64,000 nucleotides of DNA from Pseudoxanthomonas sp. F37 (lineage in GTDB: Bacteria; Pseudomonadota; Gammaproteobacteria; Xanthomonadales; Xanthomonadaceae): NCBI RefSeq assembly GCF_022965755.1, contig NZ_CP095187.1:3224001-3288000 (forward strand). Direction: 5' to 3'. The first letter of the stretch is position 1; the number at the start of each line of letters is the position of its first letter. The notes beneath the pieces were generated by a model. It saw only the letters and a list, made by a program, of their open reading frames with translations, ran no database searches and was not told the origin of the DNA. Positions 39,358 through 53,846 of this stretch are shown piece by piece. The translations under genes were made by a program, and so were the position numbers.

Positions 39358-39481
39358 GATCTTCCGGATCTGCATGCAGCTGGCAGCCACTGCCGCCAGG
39401 CGCGAAGAATGACGGATAATCGCCAATAGCGACCGTCAGGTCGTCCAATGATTCCGGTTGCCGCAAGGAGCGTGCTACCCC

Positions 39482-40432
39482 ATGAAGTTGATCATCCAGA
39501 TCCCCTGCCTCAACGAAGCCGAAACCCTTGCGGTAGCCGTTGGCGCGCTACCCCGGTCTGTCGCAGGATTCGAGCACGTCGAGTGGCTGATCGTCGACGA
39601 CGGCTCGACCGATGACACGGCCAGATTGGCACGGCAGTTGGGCGTGCACCACGTTGTTCGGCATCCGGTCAATCGCGGCCTCGCTACCGCCTTCATGACA
39701 GGCCTGGATGCATGCCTTCGCTTGGGCGCGGACGTCATCGTCAACACGGACGCCGACAACCAGTATGAAGCCGACGACATTCCACTACTGACCTCACCCA
39801 TCCTCGCTGGCGAGGCCGACATGGTGATCGGCGCCCGACCCATCGACGAGACCGAGCATTTTTCCTGGGTGAAGAAGAAACTGCAGCGACTTGGCAGCTG
39901 GGCCGTACGTGTGGCCAGCCAGACCGACGTTGCGGATGCGCCGAGCGGGTTTCGCGCCATCTCGCGGGAAACCGCAATGCGCTTGAACGTCTTCAATGCA
40001 TATACCTACACGCTGGAAACCATCATCCAGGCAGGGCGCAGCAATCTGCGCGTGTTGTCGGTACCGATTCGGACCAATCCCGATCTTCGCCCTTCGCGGT
40101 TGGTGAAGAGCATCCGCAGCTACGTGCAGCGCTCGCTGGTCACCATCTTGCGCGTGTTCGCGATCTACCGGCCGTTCTTCTTGTTCTTCTGGCCCAGCAT
40201 CATCCTGGGTGCGGCGGGGCTGCTCGCAGGCCTGCGCTATCTCTACTTCGTGCTCATCGGCGACGGCGCAGGCCACATCCAGTCCGTCATCTTCGCCGCC
40301 CTGTGCCTGATTCTGGGCGCCATCACCCTGATGATGGGTTTTCTTGCGGATCTGATCGCCACCAACCGCAAGCTGATGGAACGCATTGACGTACGAGTAC
40401 AGCGCATCGAACACGAGGTGCGCAGGAGCTAG
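39482..40432 (+). CDS. Family 2 glycosyltransferase with C-terminal membrane helices (DPM1/GtrB-like)
   Basis: 316 residues. The GT-A catalytic part has IQIPCLNEAETLAVAVGALP (residues about 4-23), WLIVDDGSTDDTARLARQLG and the DxD-type NTDADNQYEADD; two hydrophobic helices follow (about 232-255 and 270-290). This arrangement is that of polyprenyl-phosphate glycosyltransferases such as GtrB/DPM1, which charge undecaprenyl phosphate with one sugar for periplasmic decoration. Start ATG at 39482, with AAGGAG 11 bases upstream. The polytopic protein at 41151 could be the transferase that uses the product; inference only. Confidence 0.85.
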   Translation: MKLIIQIPCLNEAETLAVAVGALPRSVAGFEHVEWLIVDDGSTDDTARLARQLGVHHVVRHPVNRGLATAFMTGLDACLRLGADVIVNTDADNQYEADDIPLLTSPILAGEADMVIGARPIDETEHFSWVKKKLQRLGSWAVRVASQTDVADAPSGFRAISRETAMRLNVFNAYTYTLETIIQAGRSNLRVLSVPIRTNPDLRPSRLVKSIRSYVQRSLVTILRVFAIYRPFFLFFWPSIILGAAGLLAGLRYLYFVLIGDGAGHIQSVIFAALCLILGAITLMMGFLADLIATNRKLMERIDVRVQRIEHEVRRS

Positions 40433-40489: not shown

Positions 40490-41044
40490 TCATCGCTTGC
40501 GAGCGACCTGATACGAAGTAATGGAAACACGTGCATCTTTCGGCACCAACGCACGGATTTCCAGATCAGAAACATCGCTGGCGAGAACGATGTCGAAGGT
40601 CGGGAACGGTCCCACCTGAGTGACATTCACGCCGCCATGCGCCACTGTCCCCTTGCCGGAAGCGGCATCGAGGCGAAACTGTCCGGCGGCGACTGCATCG
40701 ACATTGCCCTGGAGCGATACGGTGTAGGTTCCTGCCTTTAATCCCACATACGGGCCAAACAAGACATAGCCATTCCTGCTGCTGTCATTGACCAGCTTGC
40801 CGTCCACCCATTTGCCGCCCTGCGTGTTGTACTTGTCGGTAGCGAGGTTGCGCGACAGGGAGTCCGCATAGGCCAATTCGGGCGCCGCCTCAACAGGCGA
40901 GGCGGCTGACGCCGGCGGCGCTTCAGCCGCGGCGTCCGGCGAGGATTCCGGCATCGGCTCCAGATGCACTCCCTCATCCTGCTGTTTGCAGGCAGTCAGG
41001 GCAAGCAATACGGCAACTGCGAGCAAAGAAGTGATCGTCTTCAT
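40490..41044 (-). CDS. Small lipoprotein with C-terminal GPY module
   Basis: 184 residues, start ATG at 41044. MKTITSLLAVAVLLALTAC has an LTAC lipobox (Cys19), then an acidic Ala/Pro/Ser linker (about 20-62). The C-terminal 120 residues form a beta-rich module with NGYVLFGPYVGLKAGTYTVS and, nearer the end, DVSDLEIRALVPKDARVSIT. The same pattern ends the membrane protein at 41151 and the large glycosyltransferase at 45419, so the module is shared inside this locus. No family recognised. Possibly a periplasmic glycan-binding lipoprotein; that is inference. Confidence 0.78.
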   Translation of the reverse strand: MKTITSLLAVAVLLALTACKQQDEGVHLEPMPESSPDAAAEAPPASAASPVEAAPELAYADSLSRNLATDKYNTQGGKWVDGKLVNDSSRNGYVLFGPYVGLKAGTYTVSLQGNVDAVAAGQFRLDAASGKGTVAHGGVNVTQVGPFPTFDIVLASDVSDLEIRALVPKDARVSITSYQVARKR

Positions 41045-41150
41045 GAAATCCTCGAAATCGGTAGTCATTGGTAGCGCCGCATCAGGCGTCGGAACGTACA
41101 CCGCCGGCATGCCACGCCGGTAGGGGGCAGAATCTTATACCTTGTGCAGC

Positions 41151-43307
41151 CTAGAGTCCCGCGACCGCCGGTTGCAGCGAGTATCCGGCAACGGTCAGAT
41201 CGTCGCCCGCCCCCACCCACAGCCGAACTTCAACCGACGCCTGGTCGCTGGGCACCTCGAAACGCCACGCGCCCAGCGAATCCGGGGACCTGGCGATAAG
41301 TGCTTCCTTCATCAGCACGCGGCGTCCCCCGTCCGAAACCACGTCCAGATAGGCCGCTTCCAGGGTGTTCGCCCTCCCCCGCAACCTTAATTCATAAATC
41401 CCGGCCGGCAAGGGACGATAGGGTCCGAAGAACAGATAACCCTCGCGGCCCGTCGTCAGCAGCCCCGTTTCGCCAAGCTTGCCAACCCTCGTGAATCTGG
41501 CGAGATCACCCGGGGAGCTGTTGAGGCATCCTCCCGACAGGAGGCACGTTTCGCCCATCCGGGGACGCCATTGGCTTCCGGAACTGGCACTGGCCCGCGC
41601 GACCGGATATCGCAGCTGCGCCGGGGCCTCTTTTACGAACACCCGCAGTCCTGTATCACTCTCAATGCCCACGACCGACAGCTCAGGATGCCGTTGTTTC
41701 CACCCTGCATTGTATGTAAGCAGCGCCCCCCGGCACGGACCGTTCGCCCACGACTCCGCCTCTTTCCCCTTCTCGTAGCGATAGTTGAAGAAGAAGAAGG
41801 AATACAGGAAACCTCGCTCGACTTGGGCCGATGCCGGATTCATATCCCGCGGCAAGGACGCCATGTCGAAGTAGACACACCCATCCGCGTAGTTGCCCCG
41901 GACGAACTCCACCACCTCCGATGGCCTGCTGCGCGTTTCCAATATGGCGCGGTGCCAATCGATCTGCGAAGTCGCAGCGAAACAGTAGAGGGCAAGAGCA
42001 CCTGACCACGCCAGGTAACGCGGCAGCAAATTGAATGCGATGACGCCCATCGCCCCCAGAGCCAGCCATCTGGAAACCGGCCCTTCCCTGAGGAACAATT
42101 CCGGCCACAAGCCGGAAATATTCACACGGTTGATTCCCCCGGATGCACCAACGCCATGACTTAACCAGATGCCGACCACGCACACCAGTATCGCGACTCC
42201 GACCATCACCCAGCGGCGTCGCTGACTCAACAGGCCAAGGGCCAGCAAAGGGAGCACGAAAGCGTCCTGATACCGCCCATAGACCCAGTGATCGAGCCGA
42301 TCAGGTGTGCCGGTGGCGGTACTGAGCGCAGTCAGCGCGATGCAGCCCAAGGGGGCGAGCAACACGAATATCCCGACCACCTCGGTCGGGACATGCGTTG
42401 CCGTCGCGTCAGCGCTCGCGAGATGACGCTGGCGCCAGCGCCTCAGAATTTCTATGGCGCCCAGGACACTGACGCCGAAGCTGGCTATCACGTTGTAGGA
42501 CAATTGCCCAAGCGCGGATCCAAGCAGCTTTGTCCACGCGCTAACGTCAAGGACAACGGCCGCGACCTTCCCCAGGCCGGGATAGTGCAAACCAGGATCG
42601 CCACCGCCGGGCGTCATGCCCGCGACCCGCCAGGGCTCCACACCATATCGATAGGCTGCGACCAAACCCAAAGAAACAACCGCATGCAACATCAGTAATC
42701 GATATGGGCGCGGCGCGACCACGAGCGCCAGTGCGAGCAGCGAAGCTATCGGCGCGACGGCGCCCGTTGGGTGAATCCAGAACTGGAGCCCGACGAGAAT
42801 CGCATGCGGGATGACCGTCAACGGTCGAAGTGGGTCGACCCGGAACAGGCTCCATACGGACAGGATGAAGAAGAACGCCACCGCGCTTTGACTGAAGGCA
42901 TATCCGCTCATCGCAAGGTTGGCTGGATAAGCAGCGACCAGCGAGGTGGCCAGAAGCAGCTGCAATCGTGACGCGGCCGGGAATAGTCTCCGGGCAACAT
43001 CATGCACGAGGCCCAGGGAAACGCCCCACATAACTGCGTTGATTATCAGCACGCCTCGCCAGACCACCCGGGGGTCATCCAGGAAGTAGAACAGGGGCGC
43101 GAGCAGAAACGAGTAGCCCGCATGATAGCTACTGGCGGAACTTACGAAGTGCCCTGCAATGAAGGCGCCATTCGTCAGATAACCTATTTCGTCGGCCAGG
43201 TACGCCGGGCCCGCCACCCATGCAGTCGCTGCGTAGAAGACGATGGCAGTCAGCAGCAGAATGCCGGCAAAGACGCCTAATTCTGGAATCCGTCCAGATT
43301 GCGTCAT
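41151..43307 (-). CDS. Polytopic membrane protein (GT-C-like) with C-terminal GPY module
   Basis: 718 residues, start ATG at 43307 preceded by a strong AGGAGAAG. About ten to twelve hydrophobic segments fill residues 10-450, with charged loops such as YLADEIGYLTNGAFIAG near the N-terminus that recall the GT-C first loop (acidic residue after helix 1). The region after about 450 is soluble and likely periplasmic, ending in the shared module (REGYLFFGPYRPLPAGIYEL, then VEVRLWVGAGDDLTVAGY). Best guess is a polyprenyl-phosphate-sugar-dependent transferase decorating the O-antigen, paired with the GT2 at 39482. No direct family assignment. Confidence 0.78.
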   Translation of the reverse strand: MTQSGRIPELGVFAGILLLTAIVFYAATAWVAGPAYLADEIGYLTNGAFIAGHFVSSASSYHAGYSFLLAPLFYFLDDPRVVWRGVLIINAVMWGVSLGLVHDVARRLFPAASRLQLLLATSLVAAYPANLAMSGYAFSQSAVAFFFILSVWSLFRVDPLRPLTVIPHAILVGLQFWIHPTGAVAPIASLLALALVVAPRPYRLLMLHAVVSLGLVAAYRYGVEPWRVAGMTPGGGDPGLHYPGLGKVAAVVLDVSAWTKLLGSALGQLSYNVIASFGVSVLGAIEILRRWRQRHLASADATATHVPTEVVGIFVLLAPLGCIALTALSTATGTPDRLDHWVYGRYQDAFVLPLLALGLLSQRRRWVMVGVAILVCVVGIWLSHGVGASGGINRVNISGLWPELFLREGPVSRWLALGAMGVIAFNLLPRYLAWSGALALYCFAATSQIDWHRAILETRSRPSEVVEFVRGNYADGCVYFDMASLPRDMNPASAQVERGFLYSFFFFNYRYEKGKEAESWANGPCRGALLTYNAGWKQRHPELSVVGIESDTGLRVFVKEAPAQLRYPVARASASSGSQWRPRMGETCLLSGGCLNSSPGDLARFTRVGKLGETGLLTTGREGYLFFGPYRPLPAGIYELRLRGRANTLEAAYLDVVSDGGRRVLMKEALIARSPDSLGAWRFEVPSDQASVEVRLWVGAGDDLTVAGYSLQPAVAGL

Positions 43308-43354
43308 CTTCTCCTCCCCTCCTCGATTCGCGTCCCCAGGTTCATCGGCGCTTG

Positions 43355-44254
43355 TCAGCCGTCCGCCAGCATCCAGCGCAACGTTTCCCGCAATGGCGCG
43401 GCCTGCCAATCGCCCAACAGGGCGCGAAGACTCGCATTGTCGCCCCGCAACACCTTCACTTCATTTGCCCGGACGAACGCGGGATTGACTTCGATTTCCA
43501 GATCATGGCCTGTCAGTTCACTGCACATGGCGACCACCTCCCGGAGCGAATGCGCCTGTCCCGAACTGATGTTGTAGGTGCCTCCCACGGCGTCGCGCGT
43601 CTCGACAAGCCGGCGATAAAGATGCACCACCGTCCTGACATCACTGAAATCCCGTGATACATCGAGATTTCCCAATTCAATGCGTTCGGCACGCCGCCGG
43701 AAGTGGGCAACGATCTTCGGAAGCAGGTAGTTGCTGGCCTGTCCAACGCCTGTGTAGTTGAAAGGACGGGCGACCACTATGGGAAGGCGGTCACTCCATA
43801 GCCGCGCCATGTACTCCATGGCCAGCTTGCTTACGGCGTAGTCGTTTGCGGGCGCGGGTGGCGTACTCTCACTGAGCGACCCTTCGCTTGCATTTCCGTA
43901 CACGTTTGCACTGCTCGCGAGCAGAACGCAATCGGGACGGTTTCCGGCACCTGCGGCTGCGTCTAGGAGATGTCGAGTGCCTATGACGTTCACACGGTAG
44001 AAATCATCGGCATCGCCATGGCCGACAAATGCCAGCGCGGCCAAATGAATGACGATTCGAGGCTGCAGATCCGCAAGCAGCGACCGCATTGCCTCTGCAT
44101 CAGTCAGATCCACCCGGTGGTAGTCCGCGCGGTCGCTTTCGCCGCTACCCATTCCGACAACCTGGTAGCCTGAGCGGGACAGCTCATCCATCAGGTAGCG
44201 CCCCGTGAAGCCTAGGGCGCCGGTGACAAGGACCCGCTTGCCGGGCTCCGCCAT
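43355..44254 (-). CDS. rmd: GDP-4-dehydro-6-deoxy-D-mannose reductase (probable)
   Basis: 299-residue short-chain dehydrogenase/epimerase. The NAD(P) motif is VTGALGFTGRYL (about 9-20), the catalytic Tyr-Lys pair is in DYAVSKLAMEYM (about 138-149), with LLASSANVYGNASEGSLSES before it. Immediately downstream of gmd (stop and start share a base), so it most likely reduces the gmd product to GDP-D-rhamnose. GDP-fucose synthase (Fcl) or GDP-talose synthesis are alternatives, but the sequence RDFSDVRTVVHLYRRLVET is of the Rmd type. Confidence 0.85.
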   Translation of the reverse strand: MAEPGKRVLVTGALGFTGRYLMDELSRSGYQVVGMGSGESDRADYHRVDLTDAEAMRSLLADLQPRIVIHLAALAFVGHGDADDFYRVNVIGTRHLLDAAAGAGNRPDCVLLASSANVYGNASEGSLSESTPPAPANDYAVSKLAMEYMARLWSDRLPIVVARPFNYTGVGQASNYLLPKIVAHFRRRAERIELGNLDVSRDFSDVRTVVHLYRRLVETRDAVGGTYNISSGQAHSLREVVAMCSELTGHDLEIEVNPAFVRANEVKVLRGDNASLRALLGDWQAAPLRETLRWMLADG

Positions 44255-45288
44255 CAGAACGAAACCCCCTTCTCGTTTCTGCGCAGATCGGCTTCCACCA
44301 TCATCGCGCACAGGCCTTCCAGGTTCGTGTTCGGCCGCCAGCCAAGCTGCAAGCGGGCCTTCTCGGGATTTCCGATCAGCAGATCGACTTCCGCAGGACG
44401 GTAATACCGCGGATTGATTCGGACCAGTTCCCTCCCCGTGACAGCCTCGACACCCCGCTCGCCTTCGTCCTTGCCCGTCCATTCGATCACGGTGCCGGCC
44501 GCCTTGAAGGCCATGGTCACAAAGTCGCGAACAGTCTCGGTGCGATTGGTCGCCAATACATAGGTATCCGGTTCCTCCGCCTGGAGCATGCGCCACATGC
44601 CGTCAACGTACTCGCGCGCATATCCCCAGTCCCGCTTGGCGTCCAGATTGCCCAACTCAAGCACATCAAGTTTCCCCAGCGCGATCTTGGCGACGGAGTC
44701 CGTGATCTTGCGGGTAACGAACTCGCGTCCACGCAGTGGCGATTCATGATTGAAGAGAATGCCACTGCAACCGAAGATGTCGTACGACTCGCGATAATTG
44801 ATCGTCATCCAGTGCGCATAGAGCTTGGCCACACCATACGGACTACGAGGGTAGAAAGGAGTCGTCTCGGTCTGCGGCACCGCCTGGACCTTGCCGAACA
44901 TTTCCGAAGTCGACGCCTGATAGAAGCGAATCTTCGAATCCACCTGACGGATGGCCTCCAACAAGTGGACCGGCCCGATACCGGTAATATGTGCGGTCGT
45001 CGTCGGCTGATCGAAAGAAACACCGACGAAGCTCTGCGCCGCGAGATTGTAGACCTCGGTCGCGCCGGTAGTCTCCAGCATACGGATGCTTGATCCCAGA
45101 TCGGTCAGATCGTACTCGATCAAATGGAGATTGGGGTGCTGGTCGATCCCCAATTCCTCGATGCGCCAGAAGTTCACCGAACTCGTGCGACGGTAGGTGC
45201 CGTAGACTTGGTATCCCTTCTCCAGCAGGAGTTCGGCCAGATATGCCCCATCCTGGCCGGAGATCCCCGTAATCACTGCCGTCTTCAT
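44254..45288 (-). CDS. gmd: GDP-mannose 4,6-dehydratase
   Basis: 344 residues converting GDP-D-mannose to GDP-4-keto-6-deoxy-D-mannose. NADP-binding [19 protein letters not shown] (about 7-25), [15 protein letters not shown], the catalytic [10 protein letters not shown] with Tyr/Lys in [15 protein letters not shown], and the Gmd-specific RRWDYARDFV-type stretch (here [14 protein letters not shown]). The start is the ATG at 45288; the codon before it is TTG. It feeds rmd, and both act on GDP-mannose from the two genes at 36579-39357. Confidence 0.94.
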
Positions 45289-45418
45289 CAAAGTTCCTCA
45301 ATTATGGATTGCCTGTTCAGGCGAACTCGCCGGGATAATACTGCAAGCTTGTCATCCAGCTCCAGTTGCCCATGCCGTGAGATCTGCCGCGAGCGCACGA
45401 TTCCTCCCTTTCACGCCA

Positions 45419-48400
45419 TCAACATCGGGATTCTGACTCGGCAGCACAAGGAATAATCCGCAGCGCCGCAATGGAAAGCCGGGTATCGGCCCGGACGGAA
45501 ATCCGGATTTCGAGGTCCGGCACGTCGTTCGGCAACACGAAGTTGGCGCCGACCAATAGGCCGTCCTCGCTATTGGAGACCGCCAACGCGAACGGTTGAA
45601 CGAAGTGAACGGTGGTACCGCTGCCCGAGCAGACATCCAGCCAACCGCCCCCCGTTCCCGTGCCTTCTACCTCGAGCCGGTAGTCACCCGCGGCCTGCGG
45701 AACATAGGGGCCATAGAGCAGGATGCCTTCGCGCCCCCGGGTTTCCAGCCTTCCGCGCACCACGCAGCCCACCTCCGACTTCAGGCGGTAGTCGGTTGCC
45801 GCAAACTGACGAACCGGGCCAGGCAACCATTGGTGAACCCATTGCCCTTCCGATATCACCCCTACGAGTTGCCGGGTGGCTGTTGCCCAACTAGCCCAAG
45901 TGATGCCATCGGCCTTCGGGTGTTCGCCGAGCTCGTATAGCGTCAGCCAAGACTGGACGGCTGCGGACAGACTGCCTGCGTCGTAACCACTGAAGTAGTG
46001 AGCATGGTCACCCGCCACCTCGCGAAAGACAGGGAGATCCCTGGCTATCAACGGCACTCCATGACGGGCGGCCTCAATCAGTGGCAGGCCGTAGCCTTCT
46101 CCCTCTGAAGCCATCAGCAATGCCGAGGCTCGCCGGTAAGCCTCCAGCAAAAGGACATCACCGGCTTCGTCGAACCAGAACAGCCGCCTGTCCCGCTCTG
46201 GATGATTGGCGATCCTAGCGACCAGATCTTCCACTAGCCAGCCTGGCCGTCCGATCAATACCAGGTTGATTTCGGCCCCCTGCTGCCAAAGTTGCTCGAA
46301 CGCGGCGAGCGCCTGCGCGTGTCCCTTCCGGGGCTCGATCGTGCCGACCATCAGCACATTCACGCGTCCGGACAGCGCCGCAAGGTCATCGTCGACGGAA
46401 GGAGGGGCCACCAGTCTGGTCGCCGAGGATCCATCGAGATCCGCGCCTAGGTGAAACCAACCGATCCGCAAAGGGTTCTGGCGCTCCGGGCGCGACTGGT
46501 GCAGCCAATGCTCGAACTCATCCGCCACAGCCTTGGATATGCAGAGAACTCCGTCTGAAACCTCGGCGACGGCCTCATACCACGCGCGGAACAATGGAAG
46601 CAGGTGGGATTCGAAACAATCCGGGCGCAAGAGCGGCAGAAGATCGTAGACGACGAAGTACTGCCTCACCCCCTGGCTGCTCAGCTGGCGGAACCTGCTC
46701 ACGTAAGCAGGCACCAGATGGGCCACCAGATCCAGGCCCAGATAAACGTCACCGGATGCGAATTCCACGGGCCCATCTTCGGGCAGTTCCTCCCCGGAGA
46801 AATATCGACGGGCGCAGTACGAACGCGCGTACCGGAATATTCCGTCGTCACCGAGGCTGACGGGTTCGATGCGGTAGCCCACTGGGGGCGAATGCATCAG
46901 TTCGTCCAGCATGTGGCGAACCACGCGCTGTATTCCGGTGCCGGCATCACGCACTGCCAAGTTAGTGATGTCGACGAACCAACGCGGCTCCCGCACATCG
47001 TTCCGATTGGCCACCCACGCTTGTGCGAACCTGGCCCAATCACCTTCACCGGCATATGCCGAGGATTTGTCACGCACCAGCTCTCCAGCCAGCTGGCGGA
47101 TCTCATCACGCCACCCGGGAATCACTCCCGCAGGCCGCCGGTCCGTCCGGATCAATTGGCATCGGCCAACGAGCTCCAGGGCCTCGACGGGCAACAACGT
47201 CGCCAGGGCGTCGGCAGCGTAGCCCGCCGTCAGTCCTTGCGCCAACGCGGGATAACCGCCGTATCGATAAAGTACTTCAGCTATCGCGGCACGGTCGAGT
47301 CTCGCCAATTCGGCCCAGAGCCGACCTATAGATCCCGTTTCTACGACCAGGTCCGCCGGATACGCGCGCGCCGCCATCAAGGTCTTGGCACAATATTCGC
47401 TGTCGGTGACCTCGACCACGAACCGGTCAATCTCGGATGCCCAGTCGGCCAACTCCGATAGCCTGTGCTGGCACGCCGGTCGCAGGCCCGCAGCCACGTC
47501 CCCCAACACAACGACAGCGCCATCAGGCACGTCTTCCCTGCCCCCGGGCGCGGGCAGCCAGGCATATGGCTGGCCGTGGGCCCTCATGTCCGGTTCTGCT
47601 TCCTGCGACTTTCGTCGGGAAGACGCAGAGCACTTCCTTTCATAGGCTCGCTCCATGCCGTCCAGAGCGAGCGAGGCCGATGCCTCCCAAGAAAACCGCT
47701 TCACCTGCAGCAGGGCGTGCGCGAGAAATCTCTGGCGGAAATCCTCGTCAGTCAGGGCATGCCTGAGCTTCAAGCTGAATCCAACGTCGTCCGTCGGATC
47801 AAACAGCGCTTCTTCCATGCCAATGACTTCCGGCAAACTCGAGCAGTTCGAACCGATAACCACGGCGCCACTGGACATGGCTTCCAAGGCAGGCAAGCCA
47901 AAACCTTCCTGCAGGGAAGGAAACGCATAGAGACGGCATTGGTTGTAGAGGCCGACCAGATCGGCGTCGGCCACGAATCCAGCAAACACGACGTTGTCGG
48001 CACCCAGGCCACATTCGGCGACCACTGCTTCAAGCGACAATCGTTCAGAAGCGGGCGCCTGCCCTACGATCACCAGTTGGTGTGTTGTCCGAAGCCCATC
48101 GGGGAGCATGGCGAAAGCCCGAACTAGGGCGGAGATGTTCTTGCGCGAATCGAATCCACCTGCATACATCACGAACGGCCGTTCAATGCCGTAGCGGGCG
48201 AGGAGCCTATCGCGCCGGAATTGTCCTGGTTCTTCACGGCGGAATATTTCGTCCGCCGCACCCAGGATGTTGGTGACTCTATCTGGCTCGACGCCGAGCA
48301 ATCCGATCGCTTCCTCGCAGGAAAACTGCGATATTCCAAGCATCTGGTCCGCTGCCCGGAACTGCTCGAGCCTCGCCATGTACCATGCGCGCACGCCTTG

Positions 48401-48862
48401 ATCCGCCAGGTAGCTCTGCCGGTGGACCAATGGAATCAAGTCGTACAGAGTAACCACGTTGATGTAGGGATCGCTTTCCGAAAGCGTCGATACGACGTCG
48501 TCGGCGACGCCCTCGAATACACTGGCCACGTGAACCACGTCTGGCGCAAGGGATCGCAGCATTTGCCTCCTGAGGACCTCGGACGCACGTCTACGGAATG
48601 CGTTTTCCGCCGGAATGAACCCTGTCTTCGCCAATCCTCTCCATATGATGATGTCGCTGTCCGGCAGGTACGGCTGGAACTGCGCACGCAAGAAGCCAAG
48701 CCGCTCGGGCATCGCCGAGTTGAGCAGGATGGAGATGCGGTGTCCTCGTGGGCTTGCGGCGATCGCCTTCGCGAGCGACAGTGAATAGCGCCCGATGCCC
48801 CGCCTCCCGCTCTCGGGGGATTGGCAAGCCTGCAAGTCCAGTACGATATGCAATTGCGCCAC
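45419..48862 (-). CDS. Large tandem-GT4 glycosyltransferase with C-terminal GPY module
   Basis: 1147 residues. Domain 1 (about 1-410) is GT4: LDLQACQSPESGRRGIGRYS, FVMYAGGFDSRKNISALVRA, FPSLQEGFGLPALEAMSSGA. A stretch of some 230 residues with no recognised fold follows. Domain 2 (about 640-1010) is also GT4: WFVDITNLAVRDAGTGIQRV, VNVLMVGTIEPRKGHAQALA, ASEGEGYGLPLIEAARHGVP. The last 115 residues are the shared module (REGILLYGPYVPQAAGDYRL; PDLEIRISVRADTRLSIAAL). Tandem GT4 proteins such as WbdA polymerise mannan or rhamnan O-antigens exported by Wzm/Wzt, the situation here, so this is the probable chain polymerase. Linkages cannot be read from sequence. Confidence 0.85.
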   Translation of the reverse strand: MAQLHIVLDLQACQSPESGRRGIGRYSLSLAKAIAASPRGHRISILLNSAMPERLGFLRAQFQPYLPDSDIIIWRGLAKTGFIPAENAFRRRASEVLRRQMLRSLAPDVVHVASVFEGVADDVVSTLSESDPYINVVTLYDLIPLVHRQSYLADQGVRAWYMARLEQFRAADQMLGISQFSCEEAIGLLGVEPDRVTNILGAADEIFRREEPGQFRRDRLLARYGIERPFVMYAGGFDSRKNISALVRAFAMLPDGLRTTHQLVIVGQAPASERLSLEAVVAECGLGADNVVFAGFVADADLVGLYNQCRLYAFPSLQEGFGLPALEAMSSGAVVIGSNCSSLPEVIGMEEALFDPTDDVGFSLKLRHALTDEDFRQRFLAHALLQVKRFSWEASASLALDGMERAYERKCSASSRRKSQEAEPDMRAHGQPYAWLPAPGGREDVPDGAVVVLGDVAAGLRPACQHRLSELADWASEIDRFVVEVTDSEYCAKTLMAARAYPADLVVETGSIGRLWAELARLDRAAIAEVLYRYGGYPALAQGLTAGYAADALATLLPVEALELVGRCQLIRTDRRPAGVIPGWRDEIRQLAGELVRDKSSAYAGEGDWARFAQAWVANRNDVREPRWFVDITNLAVRDAGTGIQRVVRHMLDELMHSPPVGYRIEPVSLGDDGIFRYARSYCARRYFSGEELPEDGPVEFASGDVYLGLDLVAHLVPAYVSRFRQLSSQGVRQYFVVYDLLPLLRPDCFESHLLPLFRAWYEAVAEVSDGVLCISKAVADEFEHWLHQSRPERQNPLRIGWFHLGADLDGSSATRLVAPPSVDDDLAALSGRVNVLMVGTIEPRKGHAQALAAFEQLWQQGAEINLVLIGRPGWLVEDLVARIANHPERDRRLFWFDEAGDVLLLEAYRRASALLMASEGEGYGLPLIEAARHGVPLIARDLPVFREVAGDHAHYFSGYDAGSLSAAVQSWLTLYELGEHPKADGITWASWATATRQLVGVISEGQWVHQWLPGPVRQFAATDYRLKSEVGCVVRGRLETRGREGILLYGPYVPQAAGDYRLEVEGTGTGGGWLDVCSGSGTTVHFVQPFALAVSNSEDGLLVGANFVLPNDVPDLEIRISVRADTRLSIAALRIIPCAAESESRC

Positions 48863-48962: not shown

Positions 48963-50372
48963 CTATCTGCATGCCGCCCCCCCCTGCAGGTAGGCACCAG
49001 CTGGCCCAAAAAGAAACGCGCGCGCGCGATTGACAGGAGCCGAGTGCTTTCCTAGCAGTGCCACGACGGGGCGCCGTAGGGCCTCCCACTGCGCAATCTT
49101 CCGGAGGGCCGGTTTCGCGGTTCTTTTGACGCTGGCCAGCGGACTGCGGAACGCCTTGGTGATTGAGATGGCCAACTCCTGACCCACGAGCCGGGTTGCC
49201 CGCAAGGGCCGCGTCACCCGCCAAGACGTGCTTTGGTGGATGTTGGCAAGCTCCTGTCGGACTCTGTCCGAGTCCGCGCGCTCACGGGCCATCTGTACTT
49301 GATGGCCCGCAATGATGGAATGCGCCTCGGCGATCTGCTTCTCTGTGGCCCTGAGGCTTTCCTCCCTTGCCTTGACTTGCCCCCGCAGGGCGGTGATCGC
49401 CAGTTCCTTCAGATCCATATCTTCCCGCAGCGCGCGCAACTGTTGGAGTTGCTCCGCCAAATCCTGGTCGCGACGCTCGCCCTCACGACGCAGCTCCAGG
49501 GTGATGGCCTCATGGTTCCTGCGCTCGGTCTCCAGGCGTTCGCCCAACACCCCTATCCGGTGGCGAAGGTCCACCAGCGCAGCCTCTCTGCGCTCGTTCT
49601 CCGACCTGAGGAAATCCGACACCTCCTGCCATTTGATCGATTGTTCTATCGCCGTCCTGGCCGCCTGCTGCTCCAGCAGCAAGGTGTGCTCCGAAGCACG
49701 CCGGAACTGGTCGAACACATTGGGGGGATGGATGAATGCGCCGTCGAGATCGATGCGCTCGTCGGCCACATAGAACCGGTTCAGGCCGTCCGCGTAAACG
49801 AAGTGATAGCCATGTCCCAGCAACAGATCCTGCCAATCCTCATAGGCGGGAACCTTGCTCTTGGGCTCTGTCGCCTCTACCAAGACAATCCAGGGTCGGA
49901 CCGAATCGAATGAAAAGCCCCTTAGCGCGGCGGCTTCGGCGCCCTCGCAGTCGACCTTGAGGAAATGGATCTGGCCGACCTTGTTCTGGCGACATATTTC
50001 GTCAAGCGTGACACAGGGAACGATGTATTCGGAAACCTCGAATCCGTCATCCAAGTGTCGCCTTGCATATGCCTCGTTGGTCGTGGATAGCCCCGTATCC
50101 TTGACATCGTAGAACTTCATTTCTCCCGCGCGATCCGATACCGCCACGCACAAATTGGTGTCGTGAGCCCGCTCCTGAACCAACCTTTCGAACCAATGCC
50201 GCGCGGGATCCACGTTGATTCCGCTCCAACCCATGTCATAAAAGGCCTTGGTCACCGAATCGTTGCAGGGGTCCTGGGCGCCGATATCGACATAGAAGCC
50301 CTTTTTCACGCCATGCAGCGCGCGATGCAGCATCACGTCTTCGAAATTCTGTGCGTATGAGATGAAAGTCAC
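48963..50372 (-). CDS. FkbM-type methyltransferase with long coiled coil (possible O-antigen chain terminator)
   Basis: 469 residues from a GTG at 50372 that overlaps the wzt stop (GTGA). Residues about 1-205 are an FkbM methyltransferase: KKGFYVDIGAQDPCNDSVTK (motif I), FLKVDCEGAEAAALRGFSFD (motif IV). Residues about 225-390 are a continuous heptad-rich coiled coil (ERREAALVDLRHRIGVLGER and onward). The tail is basic and amphipathic (TSWRVTRPLRATRLVGQELA). A methyltransferase joined to a coiled coil and a membrane-binding tail, next to a Wzt with a C-terminal domain, is how WbdD caps and sizes O9a O-antigen; a similar job is inferred. Confidence 0.85.
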   Translation of the reverse strand: MTFISYAQNFEDVMLHRALHGVKKGFYVDIGAQDPCNDSVTKAFYDMGWSGINVDPARHWFERLVQERAHDTNLCVAVSDRAGEMKFYDVKDTGLSTTNEAYARRHLDDGFEVSEYIVPCVTLDEICRQNKVGQIHFLKVDCEGAEAAALRGFSFDSVRPWIVLVEATEPKSKVPAYEDWQDLLLGHGYHFVYADGLNRFYVADERIDLDGAFIHPPNVFDQFRRASEHTLLLEQQAARTAIEQSIKWQEVSDFLRSENERREAALVDLRHRIGVLGERLETERRNHEAITLELRREGERRDQDLAEQLQQLRALREDMDLKELAITALRGQVKAREESLRATEKQIAEAHSIIAGHQVQMARERADSDRVRQELANIHQSTSWRVTRPLRATRLVGQELAISITKAFRSPLASVKRTAKPALRKIAQWEALRRPVVALLGKHSAPVNRARAFLFGPAGAYLQGGAACR

Positions 50373-51595
50373 TGCCTGGCCACCTTGATGCTGGGATTCA
50401 TATAGGAGCTTCCGATGAAGAAAGGCAGCCCGAGATTCTGGACATTGAAGACCAACGCGAGATCACGCCATTCGTAGTTGTCCACCAGATGCGTGTCGGA
50501 ACTGACCAGAGCCGTGGATATGGAATAGCTTCCAGGCCCAAGGTTCATGGGAAACGCGATAGCGTAGTCCACGACGTCACCTGCCTTGACGTTTTCCATG
50601 ATCTGGTCGGTGTGGTAGGTGTTGGTCCCAAATACGACCTGTCCCAACCTGTCCTTCACCATGTAGCCGAGCACCAGGCGTTCGATGTCGCGCAACACGC
50701 GCACCCTGATATTCAGGGAAACCTCGGCTCCGACCGATACGAACTCCAGCGGGAGACCTTCGCGATCGCGCAGCTCGATATCTTCGACAACGGCCTCACC
50801 AGTCCCTGAAATGGTCTGCACCCTGCCGTCGACGCTGCGCCCGGTACGAACGGTGCTGTTCTCCCGTTCGGCAATGAGCGCATTGTAAAAATCCATGACC
50901 TCTTCCGGCGCGCCATCCTTGATCAATACCCCGCGCTCCAGTAGCAGCGCCCGCGTACACAGGCTCTGTACCGCGCCACGGTCGTGCGACACGATCAGCA
51001 GCGATGTCCCTCGTTCCTGGTACTGCCTGATCCGATCGAAGCATTTGTGCTGGAAATAGGCATCGCCTACCGAAAGTGCTTCGTCCACGATCAGCAAGTC
51101 CGGCTTGAAGGCCGTGGCAACGCTGAAAGCCACACGCATCTGCATGCCGCTGGAGTACGTGCGAACCGGTTGGTCGAAGTACTCGCCAATCTCGGCGAAC
51201 TCCTCGATTCCCGGCATGCCCTGCTCTATCTCAGCGGTGGACATGCCCATCAATCCGGCCGAATGGAAGACGTTCTGGCGCCCGGTCAGTTCGGGGTTGA
51301 ATCCCATGCCCAGTTCCAGGATGGCCGCGACGCGCCCCTGGACCACCACGCTTCCTTCGCTCGGCCGCAAGGTTCCGGTGATGAGCTTGAGCAGGGTGCT
51401 CTTACCGGCGCCATTCTGGCCCACGATGCCGATCGCCTCGCCGGGCCCGAGCGAGAATGACACGCCACGCAGCACCCAATGCTCACTGCTTGCCCGTGCC
51501 GGTATGCCAAACCAGGTGGCAAAGCGCAGCAGTTCACTGCGGTACTCGCGGAAGGCCTTGCCAAGACCTCTTGCCGTGACCAGCTCCCTGCTCAT
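50369..51595 (-). CDS. wzt: O-antigen ABC exporter ATP-binding protein with C-terminal glycan-binding domain
   Basis: 408 residues, ATG at 51595 overlapping the wzm stop (ATGA). The ATPase half has Walker A GIVGQNGAGKSTLLKL (about 53-68), the signature TYSSGMQMRVAFSVATAF and Walker B LLIVDEALSVGD. After about 260 comes the Wzt C-terminal domain, beta-rich (VVEDIELRDREGLPLEFVSV, MVKDRLGQVVFGTNTYHTDQ, NLGPGSYSISTALVSSDTHL). In characterised systems this domain recognises the modified non-reducing end of the glycan before export, which matches the neighbouring methyltransferase as the modifier. Confidence 0.93.
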   Translation of the reverse strand: MSRELVTARGLGKAFREYRSELLRFATWFGIPARASSEHWVLRGVSFSLGPGEAIGIVGQNGAGKSTLLKLITGTLRPSEGSVVVQGRVAAILELGMGFNPELTGRQNVFHSAGLMGMSTAEIEQGMPGIEEFAEIGEYFDQPVRTYSSGMQMRVAFSVATAFKPDLLIVDEALSVGDAYFQHKCFDRIRQYQERGTSLLIVSHDRGAVQSLCTRALLLERGVLIKDGAPEEVMDFYNALIAERENSTVRTGRSVDGRVQTISGTGEAVVEDIELRDREGLPLEFVSVGAEVSLNIRVRVLRDIERLVLGYMVKDRLGQVVFGTNTYHTDQIMENVKAGDVVDYAIAFPMNLGPGSYSISTALVSSDTHLVDNYEWRDLALVFNVQNLGLPFFIGSSYMNPSIKVARQ

Positions 51596-52386
51596 AGGAC
51601 GTCCACCATGTCCGCGGATGCGCGACGAAACAGGAACAGCGACAGTCCCAACAGGAGCAGGGATAAGCCGCCCACGATAGCAAGGCCTTGGAGATCGGGG
51701 GACCGGCCGTGCAGCAGCACGTCCTGATAACCAGAAATGATGGGATAAAGCGGATTGCTCTGGAAATAGTGCCGCGCGGACTGGGGCACGATATCGATCA
51801 TGTAGACCACGGGCGTGAGCCAGAACCACAGCTGCAGCACGACGGCGACGACTTGCGCCACATCCCGCACGAACACATTGAAGATTCCCAGCATCATTCC
51901 AAGTGCCATCCCGAAGGCGACATTCACCAGCAGCAGGACCGGCAGCCACATCAGCCCCGCTGACGGCCAATGCCCCAGCGCCGCAAAGACCAACAACGTC
52001 GTTGCAACAAGCAGCGCGTTGTTCACCAGCGCAGATCCCGCCGCCACGACGGGCAGGCAAATGCGGGGAAACATTATCTTCTTCATGATGTTGCCGTTGT
52101 CGACGAACATGGTCAGTGACCGACTCACGAGTTCGTTGAACAGGGTCCAGGCCACAATGCCCGACATCAGGTAGATCGGATACGCATATGGGCTGTCGAC
52201 GTGCGGAAGCTTCGCCGCCAGTACTTTCGACAATACCAACGCGTAAATGGCGCATTGGGCCAGCGGCTGGAGAATCATCCACAACGTGCCGAGCTTACTC
52301 CGGACAAATCGTGCCCGCACATCGTTCCTTATGGATGTGGCAATGAAATTCCGATACGCCCATATGGCCTTGAACAGGTCTTTCAT
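51592..52386 (-). CDS. wzm: O-antigen ABC exporter permease
   Basis: 264-residue ABC-2-type permease with about six membrane helices and the amphipathic N-terminus IWAYRNFIATSIRNDVRARF, then VRSKLGTLWMILQPLAQCAI, and later LWFWLTPVVYMIDIVPQSAR, all typical of polysaccharide exporters. The start is the ATG at 52386; the frame is open upstream but unlike the family. Partner of wzt; together they move finished undecaprenyl-linked O-antigen across the inner membrane. Confidence 0.93.
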   Translation of the reverse strand: MKDLFKAIWAYRNFIATSIRNDVRARFVRSKLGTLWMILQPLAQCAIYALVLSKVLAAKLPHVDSPYAYPIYLMSGIVAWTLFNELVSRSLTMFVDNGNIMKKIMFPRICLPVVAAGSALVNNALLVATTLLVFAALGHWPSAGLMWLPVLLLVNVAFGMALGMMLGIFNVFVRDVAQVVAVVLQLWFWLTPVVYMIDIVPQSARHYFQSNPLYPIISGYQDVLLHGRSPDLQGLAIVGGLSLLLLGLSLFLFRRASADMVDVL

Positions 52387-52423
52387 GGCGGGGAGTTCCG
52401 GTGGGCCGTCGAGAGCGACATAT

Positions 52424-53806
52424 TCACTCGCATGGAGATTGGATCCGTTCTTGAATGGCCTGCAGGTGGCCCATGAGTGCGGTACCGACCGCGTCTCCTG
52501 ATAGCCGACTCCGCACATCGGACTGGGCCCGCAGACCACGGGCTTTCGCGGTAGCCGGGTCAGCCACCACTTCACGCATCAGTATTGCGGCACGTCCGAT
52601 GTCAGGCTCGGCCCAGCGCTGCCCATCCGCATGCGGGTATTGGCCCGCGAGTACCGGGACCAGCGTGGCCGGAACCAGATAGCTGTTCTGTTCCGACATG
52701 AACTCCATGTTCCCAGACCATGCCGTGGCCACGACCGGTTTTCCCAGTGCCATCGACTCGGCCATGCCCAAACCAAAGCCCTCTGCACGGTGCAGGGAAA
52801 CATAGGCATCCGCGCATCGCTGAAGCGCCTGCAAATGCGGCTTCTGGATCAGATCATCCCTCACCAGTATGCGCTCGTCCGCAGCCGCGGCCTGCAGCAG
52901 TTGGGACAACAGCTGCGAATAACCGCTGCCATTCACGGACTTGATCACCAGCTGGACCGGGGTGGCAGGGTCCGGAAAAGCGGCCTGGAATGCGGCGATG
53001 ACCCCAAGCGGATTCTTGCGCCAGAAGGAAGAATTGAAGTCGAAGGTGGTCAAGAACAGGAATGCGTCTTCGCGCAACCCAAAATCGCGACGGGCTAGGC
53101 CGCTATCGGTCGCGGGAAACAACGGCAAAGGAACCTTCAGCACCGGCTTCTTGGTCACGCCGACGAGCAAATCCCGTATGAATGCGCTGGCCACCAGAAA
53201 CTCGTCTGCCATGGACAATGACGAATGCCATTCGTCCGGAAATCTCTCCAGCTCCCAGAACCAGCATGCGACGGTGTAGCGCCGAGGAGTGTCCGCACGC
53301 CCCACCCATGACAAGGCCTGCTCAAGGTAGTCGGGGTTTACGAACACCAGATCGATATCGTGCATCGGCGCTCGGGCCGCGTATTTTGCCAAACTGTCGT
53401 CTTGCTGCGAGGCTGGCGCGGGTAGCGGAACGTCCTGGACCGCCACGGGATAGCCACGTTCGATCAGCGCGCGGGTGTAAAGCCGGGCGCTCTCACCAAG
53501 CCCCAAGGGGCCGCTGGCAAAGGCGACGATGTTCACGCCGCCTTCCTTGGAATGGGATGCCGTTTGGCTCGCATTGAGGGAGGTATCGCCACGATCCCGT
53601 GTACGAACGCTGGCGTTCCATCGTTCGGTCCGCGCAAATGCCAGATCGCCCGCCATGCGTGAACCCACCCAGCGCGCCAGCTTTTCGCGCCATGGGGTAG
53701 GCACGTGGCGATAAAGCGTCCGCCAGATCGCACTCCGGGCCAGCCGGGAAACCAGCCTCATAAGATATCGCTTGTCGGCAGAGGTGCGCGGGGCCACAGG
53801 CGTCAT
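52424..53806 (-). CDS. Glycosyltransferase family 4 (O-antigen locus)
   Basis: 460 residues. After an N-terminal extension of about 85 residues rich in Arg, the GT4 fold begins at NIVAFASGPLGLGESARLYT; donor-site motifs are FLFLTTFDFNSSFWRKNPLG, LQRCADAYVSLHRAEGFGLG and MAESMALGKPVVATAWSGNM. I place the start at the ATG at 53806 because GAGGAG lies eight bases upstream; a GTG three codons earlier is possible. It is the first LPS gene next to the metB-like gene. Sugar unknown; rhamnosyl or mannosyl transfer is likely from the available donors. Confidence 0.85.
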   Translation of the reverse strand: MTPVAPRTSADKRYLMRLVSRLARSAIWRTLYRHVPTPWREKLARWVGSRMAGDLAFARTERWNASVRTRDRGDTSLNASQTASHSKEGGVNIVAFASGPLGLGESARLYTRALIERGYPVAVQDVPLPAPASQQDDSLAKYAARAPMHDIDLVFVNPDYLEQALSWVGRADTPRRYTVACWFWELERFPDEWHSSLSMADEFLVASAFIRDLLVGVTKKPVLKVPLPLFPATDSGLARRDFGLREDAFLFLTTFDFNSSFWRKNPLGVIAAFQAAFPDPATPVQLVIKSVNGSGYSQLLSQLLQAAAADERILVRDDLIQKPHLQALQRCADAYVSLHRAEGFGLGMAESMALGKPVVATAWSGNMEFMSEQNSYLVPATLVPVLAGQYPHADGQRWAEPDIGRAAILMREVVADPATAKARGLRAQSDVRSRLSGDAVGTALMGHLQAIQERIQSPCE

Positions 53807-53846
53807 CCGGCGCACTCCTCAAATCTCCGGAAGATTGCTTCCATCC

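What the first reader, a model, noticed from the sequence alone, without database searches (positions are those of the whole stretch)
40490..48862. One undescribed-looking C-terminal module shared by three different proteins of the O-antigen locus
Seen: a small lipoprotein (40490-41044), a polytopic membrane protein (41151-43307) and a two-domain glycosyltransferase (45419-48862) all end in a beta-rich segment of about 100-120 residues with the same two blocks. Block 1: NGYVLFGPYVGLKAGTYTVS / REGYLFFGPYRPLPAGIYEL / REGILLYGPYVPQAAGDYRL. Block 2: DLEIRALVPKDARVSIT / VEVRLWVGAGDDLTVAG / DLEIRISVRADTRLSIA. The glycosyltransferase and membrane protein also share a preceding VG...G.L.T.GREG lead. 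I do not know a named family for it. Three topologies (lipid-anchored, membrane-tethered, cytoplasmic) with one module suggests a common ligand, most simply the growing or finished O-antigen, so it may be a glycan-recognition or length-sensing domain. The module's presence on both sides of the membrane is puzzling and worth resolving.
Basis: partly seen in the sequence, partly recalled or inferred. Interest (0 to 1): 0.75.

Follow-up and report, generated by a model that had tools for sequence, protein, structure and literature searches.

The report
Shared sugar-binding module, O-antigen proteins
Three different proteins of a bacterium's surface-sugar gene cluster end in the same unnamed small domain, which is predicted to fold like known sugar-binding domains and most likely lets each protein hold the sugar chain.

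Summary
Three minus-strand genes (lipoprotein, polytopic membrane protein, WbdA-like double GT4) end in one homologous module of about 120 residues, found nowhere else in this genome. No Pfam model fits it. AlphaFold gives a confident beta jelly-roll (pLDDT 88.7) whose PDB neighbours include CBM6, CBM35 and CBM36, but also non-sugar jelly-rolls. The module occurs in 56 of 297 genomes of the family, in 40 by partial match only. Of 42 host proteins collected, 18 have a recognised enzyme domain, always sugar-related: GT4, OpgB-like sulfatase fold, PMT, putative glycoside hydrolase; 24 have none or were not scanned. In 8 of 13 genomes with strong full-length copies the module is near gmd-rmd (GDP-D-rhamnose). 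Best reading: a carbohydrate-binding module for the O-polysaccharide. Both membrane sides are then expected, since the chain is made inside and exported by Wzm/Wzt. Length sensing has no support; the adjacent FkbM protein is a better ruler candidate. Precedents exist (Citrobacter ORF12, EmbC, Wzt). Unusual is one unnamed family on a polymerase, membrane proteins and lipoproteins of one locus. Binding, and a common ligand, are untested.

The parts
40490..41044 (-). lipoprotein (184 aa): signal peptide, linker and one module
   Evidence: lipobox LTAC with Lys at +2; same layout in 6 module lipoproteins of other genomes
40493..40855 (-). module copy 1 (lipoprotein C-terminus)
41151..43307 (-). 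polytopic membrane protein (718 aa), candidate GT-C glycosyltransferase; acidic motif LADEIGY after the first membrane segment; long C-terminal soluble tail
   Evidence: no Pfam match above cut-off and no NCBIfam family
41154..41525 (-). module copy 2 (membrane protein C-terminus)
   Evidence: model mc4082f2a40f5 residues 141-250
45419..48862 (-). WbdA-like polymerase (1147 aa), two GT4 domains plus module
   Evidence: plasmid genes annotated wbdA match between residues 4 and 1000 (69% of the query in two pieces, about 39% identity) and stop before the module
45434..45811 (-). module copy 3 (polymerase C-terminus)
   Evidence: model m5f26c1628fe3
43355..44290 (-). rmd-like reductase of the GDP-D-rhamnose pathway (start codon not settled)
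   Evidence: SDR/GDP_Man_Dehyd families; the name rmd is recalled
44254..45291 (-). gmd-like GDP-mannose 4,6-dehydratase
   Evidence: conserved next to rmd in relatives; name by recall, not scanned
48963..50372 (-). FkbM methyltransferase with a long charged tail; candidate chain terminator and ruler
50369..51604 (-). Wzt ATPase with C-terminal Wzt_C domain
   Evidence: PF14524 E 8.7e-36
51592..52437 (-). Wzm permease
   Evidence: PF01061
52424..53815 (-). second GT4-type glycosyltransferase, no module found
39458..40432 (+). GT2 resembling polyprenyl-phosphate-sugar synthases, possible donor maker for the periplasmic enzyme
   Evidence: below NCBIfam cut-offs

Best explanation
The shared C-terminal segment is an unnamed carbohydrate-binding module (CBM), a beta jelly-roll of about 120 residues, that binds the backbone of the O-polysaccharide made by this locus (GDP-mannose and GDP-D-rhamnose are the donors that its genes suggest). 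On the WbdA-like polymerase it would hold the growing chain in the cytoplasm. The chain is exported by Wzm/Wzt, whose Wzt carries its own unrelated Wzt_C domain. On the membrane protein, most likely a periplasmic GT-C enzyme fed by the GT2 encoded next door, it would bind the exported chain as acceptor. On the lipoprotein it would bind the same chain on the periplasmic or outer-membrane side. Shown: homology of the copies, predicted jelly-roll, hosts and gene neighbourhood. Inferred: ligand, periplasmic placement, GT-C chemistry, and any effect on affinity or processivity.
For: Homology of the three copies. Fold: copy 3 modelled with 6 sequences at pLDDT 88.7, pTM 0.82; PDB neighbours CBM6 5fui (E 5.2e-4, TMt 0.65), CBM36 7ay3 (6.7e-4, 0.63), CBM6 1uy0 (7.1e-4, 0.60), CBM35 2w1w (1.3e-3, 0.66). 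Copy 2 (module part pLDDT about 72-90) reaches CBM6, CBM4-2, CBM16, CBM61 and CBM36, all at E above 0.001. Hosts: 42 proteins with 43 copies. Ten are GT4 enzymes, 8 of them double; six are sulfatase-fold proteins, the two given to NCBIfam being phosphoglycerol transferase I; one matches PMT; one is a GxGYxYP putative glycoside hydrolase with two copies. The 14 polytopic hosts fall into six groups without detectable mutual similarity, as for a movable module. Neighbourhood: of 13 genomes with a strong full-length copy in a 297-genome family sample, 10 have rmd, against 21 of the 284 others; in 8 of 13 it lies near the module. Precedents: Citrobacter youngae ORF12, a GT-C whose isolated C-terminal CBM bound its unmodified O-polysaccharide (PMC11127046), and EmbC, whose CBM's structural neighbours include CBM6 and CBM36 (PMC3044687).
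Against: No binding was tested. The fold is generic: Cry-toxin domains, capsid proteins and binary-toxin components score as well as CBMs, and the top hit of copy 2 is a toxin component. No Trp is invariant; G-P-Y, one G and one E are invariant in the 35 of 43 copies aligned, and among the 8 copies left out L087 has G-P-F and the five shortened OpgB-type copies lack that part. 24 of 42 hosts have no recognised domain or were not scanned. 3 of the 13 strong genomes lack rmd at the cut used and 21 of 31 rmd genomes lack a strong copy; the Fisher test ignores relatedness, and only some candidates per genome are scored. In the five loci with two or more copies, copies cluster by host type (4 changes, 0 of 500 shuffles as low) and not by locus (9 changes, 201 of 500 as low), so nothing shows that copies of one locus share a ligand. 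In ORF12 the CBM was not essential under the conditions tested (PMC11127046).
Confidence: 0.7

Rival explanations
1. The module is a protein-protein docking or dimerisation domain that assembles the O-antigen machinery, not a glycan binder.
For: Jelly-rolls also serve as assembly domains: streptococcal accessory secretion proteins and capsid proteins are among the structural neighbours. The columns invariant in A5 include no Trp.
Against: One homotypic scaffold cannot easily join cytoplasmic polymerases and lipid-anchored lipoproteins. Copies also occur on OpgB-like proteins with no match to 16 named genes of the window's region in the 15-16 kb fetched around them (L026-L029, L075, L088) and twice on a putative glycoside hydrolase.
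Confidence: 0.15
2. The module binds something common to many envelope glycans or lipid-linked intermediates (a primer, polyprenyl-phosphate-linked sugar or core sugar) rather than the O-polysaccharide backbone.
For: OpgB-like hosts act on other periplasmic glycans (NCBIfam name; substrate recalled), and regions outside the family hold other polysaccharide genes.
Against: Strong full-length copies are enriched with rmd and often near it. Among the 23 core copies compared, identity is at most 50%, leaving room for different specificities.
Confidence: 0.1
3. The module senses chain length.
For: It is on a WbdA-like polymerase.
Against: The locus has an FkbM methyltransferase with a long charged tail next to the polymerase, resembling the terminators with coiled-coil rulers described for Klebsiella and E. 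coli (PMC11231755); the coiled coil itself is only suggested here. The module is also on proteins that are not polymerases.
Confidence: 0.05

Closest known systems
C-terminal CBM of Citrobacter youngae ORF12 (GT136, GT-C) (PMC11127046; section 9 and passages seen)
   Same: C-terminal beta-rich domain after the membrane part of a periplasmic sugar transferase in an ABC-exported O-antigen locus with a rhamnose/mannose backbone; the isolated domain bound the unmodified O-polysaccharide
   Different: The parts I saw mention no copies on a polymerase or lipoprotein.
EmbC C-terminal CBM (PMC3044687; abstract and section 7 seen)
   Same: Beta-sandwich CBM at the C-terminus of a GT-C enzyme, top structural neighbours including CBM6 and CBM36, linked to acceptor binding
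   Different: Different enzyme and polymer; the Trp residues and calcium site described there were not shown here
Wzt_C (PF14524), domain of the O-antigen ABC transporter
   Same: Sugar-chain recognition (from the papers) at the end of a protein of the same locus
   Different: No sequence relation: 35 modules against 5 Wzt_C domains give probability 3.7% over 13 columns
WbdA polymannose polymerase (E. coli O8/O9a, Klebsiella type)
   Same: Double-GT4 polymerase of an ABC-dependent locus; plasmid wbdA genes about 39% identical over 69% of the query
   Different: Those matches end at residue 1000, before the module
CBM6, CBM35 and CBM36 families
   Same: Predicted jelly-roll fold
   Different: No CBM model among the Pfam matches of 35 copies; 10-16% identity in the structural alignments
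Phosphoglycerol transferase I (NF009027, OpgB-like)
   Same: Its members here carry a module copy at the C-terminus, so this whole-protein NCBIfam model spans the module region

Membership tests
Carbohydrate-binding modules (jelly-roll CBMs) as a kind | beta-sandwich jelly-roll fold | tested here: met
   by prediction only; second copy (weaker); fold shared with non-CBMs
Carbohydrate-binding modules (jelly-roll CBMs) as a kind | non-catalytic module joined to carbohydrate-active proteins, movable between them | tested here: met
   18 of 42 hosts have a recognised enzyme domain, all sugar-related; six unrelated polytopic groups; 24 hosts unassigned
Carbohydrate-binding modules (jelly-roll CBMs) as a kind | measured carbohydrate binding | not testable with these tools
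   none
CBM6/CBM35/CBM36 sequence families | match to the family's sequence model | tested here: not met
   35 of 43 copies scanned against Pfam-A; the 12 families listed at E 0.5 hold no CBM; CAZy's own models not available
Wzt_C | sequence homology to PF14524 | tested here: not met
WbdA-like polymerase (for 45419-48862) | two GT4 domains with similarity to WbdA along both, in an ABC-dependent locus | tested here: met
WbdA-like polymerase (for 45419-48862) | polymerising activity and linkage | not testable with these tools
   none
GT-C glycosyltransferase (for 41151-43307) | polytopic membrane protein with acidic motif after the first membrane segment and GT-C kinship | tested here: inconclusive
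   motif LADEIGY and 13 hydropathy peaks; no family match for this protein; L070, a module-bearing protein of another group, matches PMT PF02366
GT136 (ORF12) | sequence homology to ORF12 | not tested
Lipoprotein (for 40490-41044) | signal peptide with lipobox cysteine | tested here: met
   by eye: LTAC-K; lipobox also in 6 other module lipoproteins, none with Asp at +2; sorting rule recalled

The most novel reading that the evidence does not exclude
One unnamed sugar-binding module family accompanies the O-polysaccharide through its life: on the cytoplasmic polymerase, on the periplasmic decorating enzyme, and on a lipoprotein made of little else. That lipoprotein would be a dedicated O-polysaccharide-binding factor at the envelope, a kind of LPS-handling protein that I do not recall being described; a paper search for such a lipoprotein listed 10 papers, none with that subject in its title or abstract start (open-licence papers only).
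Probability: 0.3. Interest if true: 0.75.

Novelty: new variant of a known kind. Interest (0 to 1): 0.58.

Why it matters
CBMs on O-antigen enzymes are known singly and their purpose is unsettled: in ORF12 the CBM binds the chain yet was not essential as tested (PMC11127046). Here one homologous family sits on polymerases, on several unrelated membrane proteins, on OpgB-like transferases and on stand-alone lipoproteins. That allows a comparative test of what a CBM adds to chain synthesis, decoration and retention, gives an unnamed domain a testable ligand, and marks otherwise unannotated membrane proteins as probably glycan-active.

Tried and rejected
Length sensing by the module: rejected as the lead reading (see rivals). 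Kinship with Wzt_C: rejected by profile comparison. Gmad2, the only Pfam hint over the module in the three proteins (E 0.042, 14.6 bits against a cut-off of 25.7; best 0.0026 for 1 of 35 copies): not shared, rejected. DUF4397 (4 of 35 copies, best E 0.019): too weak. PDB sequence search with the profiles: a designed protein (9vgj, E 5.3e-4 and 4.4e-5, partial) and chance-level hits, not used. Copies of one locus resembling one another: not supported (locus 9 changes, shuffled mean 9.7; host type 4, shuffled mean 7.4; 15 rows of 5 loci). Rows left out of the 35-row tree: 8 of 43 copies (L020 twice, L083, L085, L086, L087 without a host type; L028 and L029 as near-copies). Rows left out of the 35-row alignment A5: 8 of 43 (L026-L029, L088, L081, L084, L087). 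Phage-borne copies: none in 50,697 phage records with the membrane-protein module; in viral contigs with A1, 120 stretches matched a pattern and none was confirmed. Relative of the whole membrane protein on plasmids: none at E 0.001. Coiled coil in the FkbM tail: heptad score 0.36 against shuffled mean 0.26, reached by 17 of 300 shuffles, suggestive only. Neighbourhoods of L083, L084 and L085 were not examined. Literature on this module: searches listed nothing that by title or abstract start describes it; only open-licence papers are held, and papers were seen as follows: PMC11127046 (section 9 and passages), PMC11231755 (passages), PMC3044687 (abstract, section 7), PMC2238763 (passages); all others as listings.
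Full report
1. Observation. The three genes lie on the minus strand at the stated coordinates, and the quoted blocks are all there. In the window's own genome (one contig, 3.97 Mb) the lipoprotein's module finds only itself and the other two; profile searches agree. Pairwise local scores stand 12, 24 and 21 standard deviations above 1000 shuffles each. The module is about 120 residues long; the 11-row consensus centres on GYLLFGPYV.L.AG.Y and DLEIR..V. In 35 of the 43 copies collected, G-P-Y, one further G and one E are invariant, and one G, one Y and one R nearly so. The 8 copies not in that alignment are five shortened OpgB-type ones, which lack the G-P-Y part, and L081, L084 and L087; L087 has G-P-F.

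2. Locus. From the metB side: a GT4-type transferase without module (52424-53815), Wzm, Wzt with a Wzt_C domain, an FkbM methyltransferase with a long charged tail, the WbdA-like double GT4 with module, gmd, rmd, the membrane protein with module, the lipoprotein with module; then, facing them on the plus strand, a GT2 resembling polyprenyl-phosphate-sugar synthases, manC, a phosphomannomutase-like gene and etf genes (gmd, rmd, manC, phosphomannomutase and etf named by recall and context). An LPS locus between metB and etfA is described for all sequenced xanthomonads and a Stenotrophomonas (PMC2238763, passages), so the organism is probably of that family; no call named it. The genes suggest GDP-mannose and GDP-D-rhamnose as donors. 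Plasmid genes annotated wbdA match the GT at about 39% identity over 69% of its length, between residues 4 and 1000, and end before the module.

3. What the module is. In the three proteins no Pfam or NCBIfam match above cut-off covers it. Thirty-five copies scanned one by one against Pfam match 12 families at E 0.5 (best 0.0026), 11 of the 12 by a single copy, and none a CBM. AlphaFold on the polymerase copy with 6 sequences gives pLDDT 88.7 and pTM 0.82, an all-beta domain. Foldseek against the PDB returns 12 matches at E 0.001 or better; CBM6 (three entries), a CBM36, a pectate-lyase carbohydrate-binding domain, an arabinoxylanase and a carbohydrate esterase are among them, and so are five insecticidal Cry proteins; a CBM35 follows at 1.3e-3 with the highest TM-scores of the 50 rows shown. 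The list shows a fold, not a ligand. Its neighbours include CBM6, CBM4-2, CBM16, CBM61 and CBM36, but also toxin components (one of them the top hit), capsid proteins and secretion proteins, none at E 0.001 or better. The jobs share an alignment and are not independent; no superposition could be run, and the lipoprotein copy was not modelled on its own.

4. Who else has it. Counts include the window's genome. With the three-row profile 9 of 61 genomes match, all in the genus. With 11 rows, 56 of 297 genomes of the family match, in 17 of 54 genera, and 11 of 397 in a phylum sample; with 35 rows, 7 of 370 in a class sample. Only some candidates per genome are scored in the larger searches, so these are lower bounds. 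Of the 56, 13 hold a strong full-length copy (E 4.2e-11 or better), 3 a weaker one (G502, G676, G520), and 40 only a partial match from about position 38 on, in open frames of about 700-870 residues. Five loci with such partial copies were looked at (L026-L029, L088): all five proteins are sulfatase-fold by Pfam, and the one given to NCBIfam, L027, is phosphoglycerol transferase I; that whole-protein model spans the module region. L075 carries a full-length module on a protein of the same kind. The other partial-match proteins were not examined. The genome-contig scan gave two confirmed loci of 29 stretches: a Paucibacter double GT4 with gmd and rmd nearby, and a metagenomic GxGYxYP putative glycoside hydrolase with a copy at each end. 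A Sphingobium plasmid has a weak match (27.7% identity, E 9e-4, the only record of 72,556 at E 0.1) in the N-terminal part of a DUF6492 protein among glycosyltransferase, FkbM and ABC genes. Hosts L086 and L087 and the membrane host L082 lie among sugar-modifying, glycosyltransferase or ABC-2 export genes.

5. Hosts. The loci read in full give 43 copies on 42 proteins: 10 GT4 proteins, 8 of them double; 6 sulfatase-fold proteins; 14 polytopic proteins; 7 lipoproteins; the glycoside hydrolase; 4 others. Eighteen have a recognised enzyme domain, all sugar-related (GT4 10, sulfatase fold 6, PMT 1, GxGYxYP 1). Of the other 13 polytopic proteins 11 were scanned without a Pfam match above cut-off; L021's and L078's were not scanned. 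Three of 7 lipoproteins and three of the 4 others were scanned without a match above cut-off. The polytopic hosts, compared without their modules, form six groups with no mutual match at E 0.001 by BLASTP or phmmer: the window's alone; L024 alone; L022 with L070; L021 with L074; L069, L077, L078, L079, L080 and L082; L025 with L081, weakly. Distant kinship between groups is not excluded. On a tree of 35 copies host type needs 9 changes against a shuffled mean of 18.0, 0 of 200 as low; support is poor, 3 of 32 inner branches starred. In the five loci with two or more copies (15 rows) host type needs 4 changes (shuffled mean 7.4, 0 of 500 as low) and locus 9 (shuffled mean 9.7, 201 of 500 as low). 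Each host lineage has mostly kept its own version, and there is no sign of sharing within a locus.

6. Association with D-rhamnose genes. In a family sample of the same size, with handles inside those, rmd at E 1e-60 or better is found in 31 of 297 genomes. It is present in 10 of the 13 with strong full-length copies and 21 of the other 284 (Fisher p 8e-9), or 10 of 16 and 21 of 281 with the weak ones (p 2e-7). In 8 of the 13 it is close to the module (window, L024, L069, L071, L077, L078, L079, L080). The test does not correct for relatedness. Three strong genomes lack rmd at this cut (G591, G692, G517), and in two rmd-positive ones the two lie on separate contigs (G693, a sulfatase host; G679, on a 3.5-kb contig). 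So the ligand may be D-rhamnan-like in many strains, but this is not proven and not general.

7. Mechanism. The simplest reading of the host list is a carbohydrate-binding module for the chain its host works on. Cytoplasmic and periplasmic placement follows the route of the chain: synthesis inside, export by Wzm/Wzt, decoration outside. That the membrane-protein copy is periplasmic is inferred from the GT-C-like layout (acidic motif after the first membrane segment, long tail after the last, five cysteines in the tail), not shown. The lipoprotein has a lipobox followed by Lys, which by the recalled E. coli rule points to the outer membrane. Precedents: ORF12 of Citrobacter youngae, whose isolated CBM bound its own unmodified LPS but not control LPS, though the enzyme worked without it (PMC11127046); EmbC, whose CBM is linked to acceptor binding and has CBM6 and CBM36 among its neighbours (PMC3044687); and a Klebsiella O7 chain terminator with a predicted CBM of unpursued function (PMC11231755).

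8. Verdict. Real, well formed, and probably a sugar-binding module: a new variant of a known kind, an unnamed CBM-like family on proteins at successive stages of one pathway. The stand-alone lipoprotein is the least expected part. Interest 0.58.

Noticed in passing
window 48963-50372 (-): FkbM methyltransferase followed by about 170 residues rich in charge and poor in Gly/Pro, next to the polymerase and Wzt: resembles a WbdD-like chain terminator with a coiled-coil ruler. Heptad score only suggestive (17 of 300 shuffles reach it). Open-frame lengths of relatives differ (starts not settled).
   Followed up: partly
The E. coli-type model NF003000 aligns only up to residue 457 of L027.
   Followed up: partly
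L020:5358-8318: GxGYxYP putative glycoside hydrolase of a metagenomic bacterium with one module copy before and one after the enzyme domains.
   Followed up: partly
L089:5791-7173 (Sphingobium sp. YG1 plasmid pYGP2): DUF6492 protein with a weak module-like match in its N-terminal part, in a plasmid-borne polysaccharide region with an IS66 element.
   Followed up: partly
   Followed up: yes
   Followed up: no
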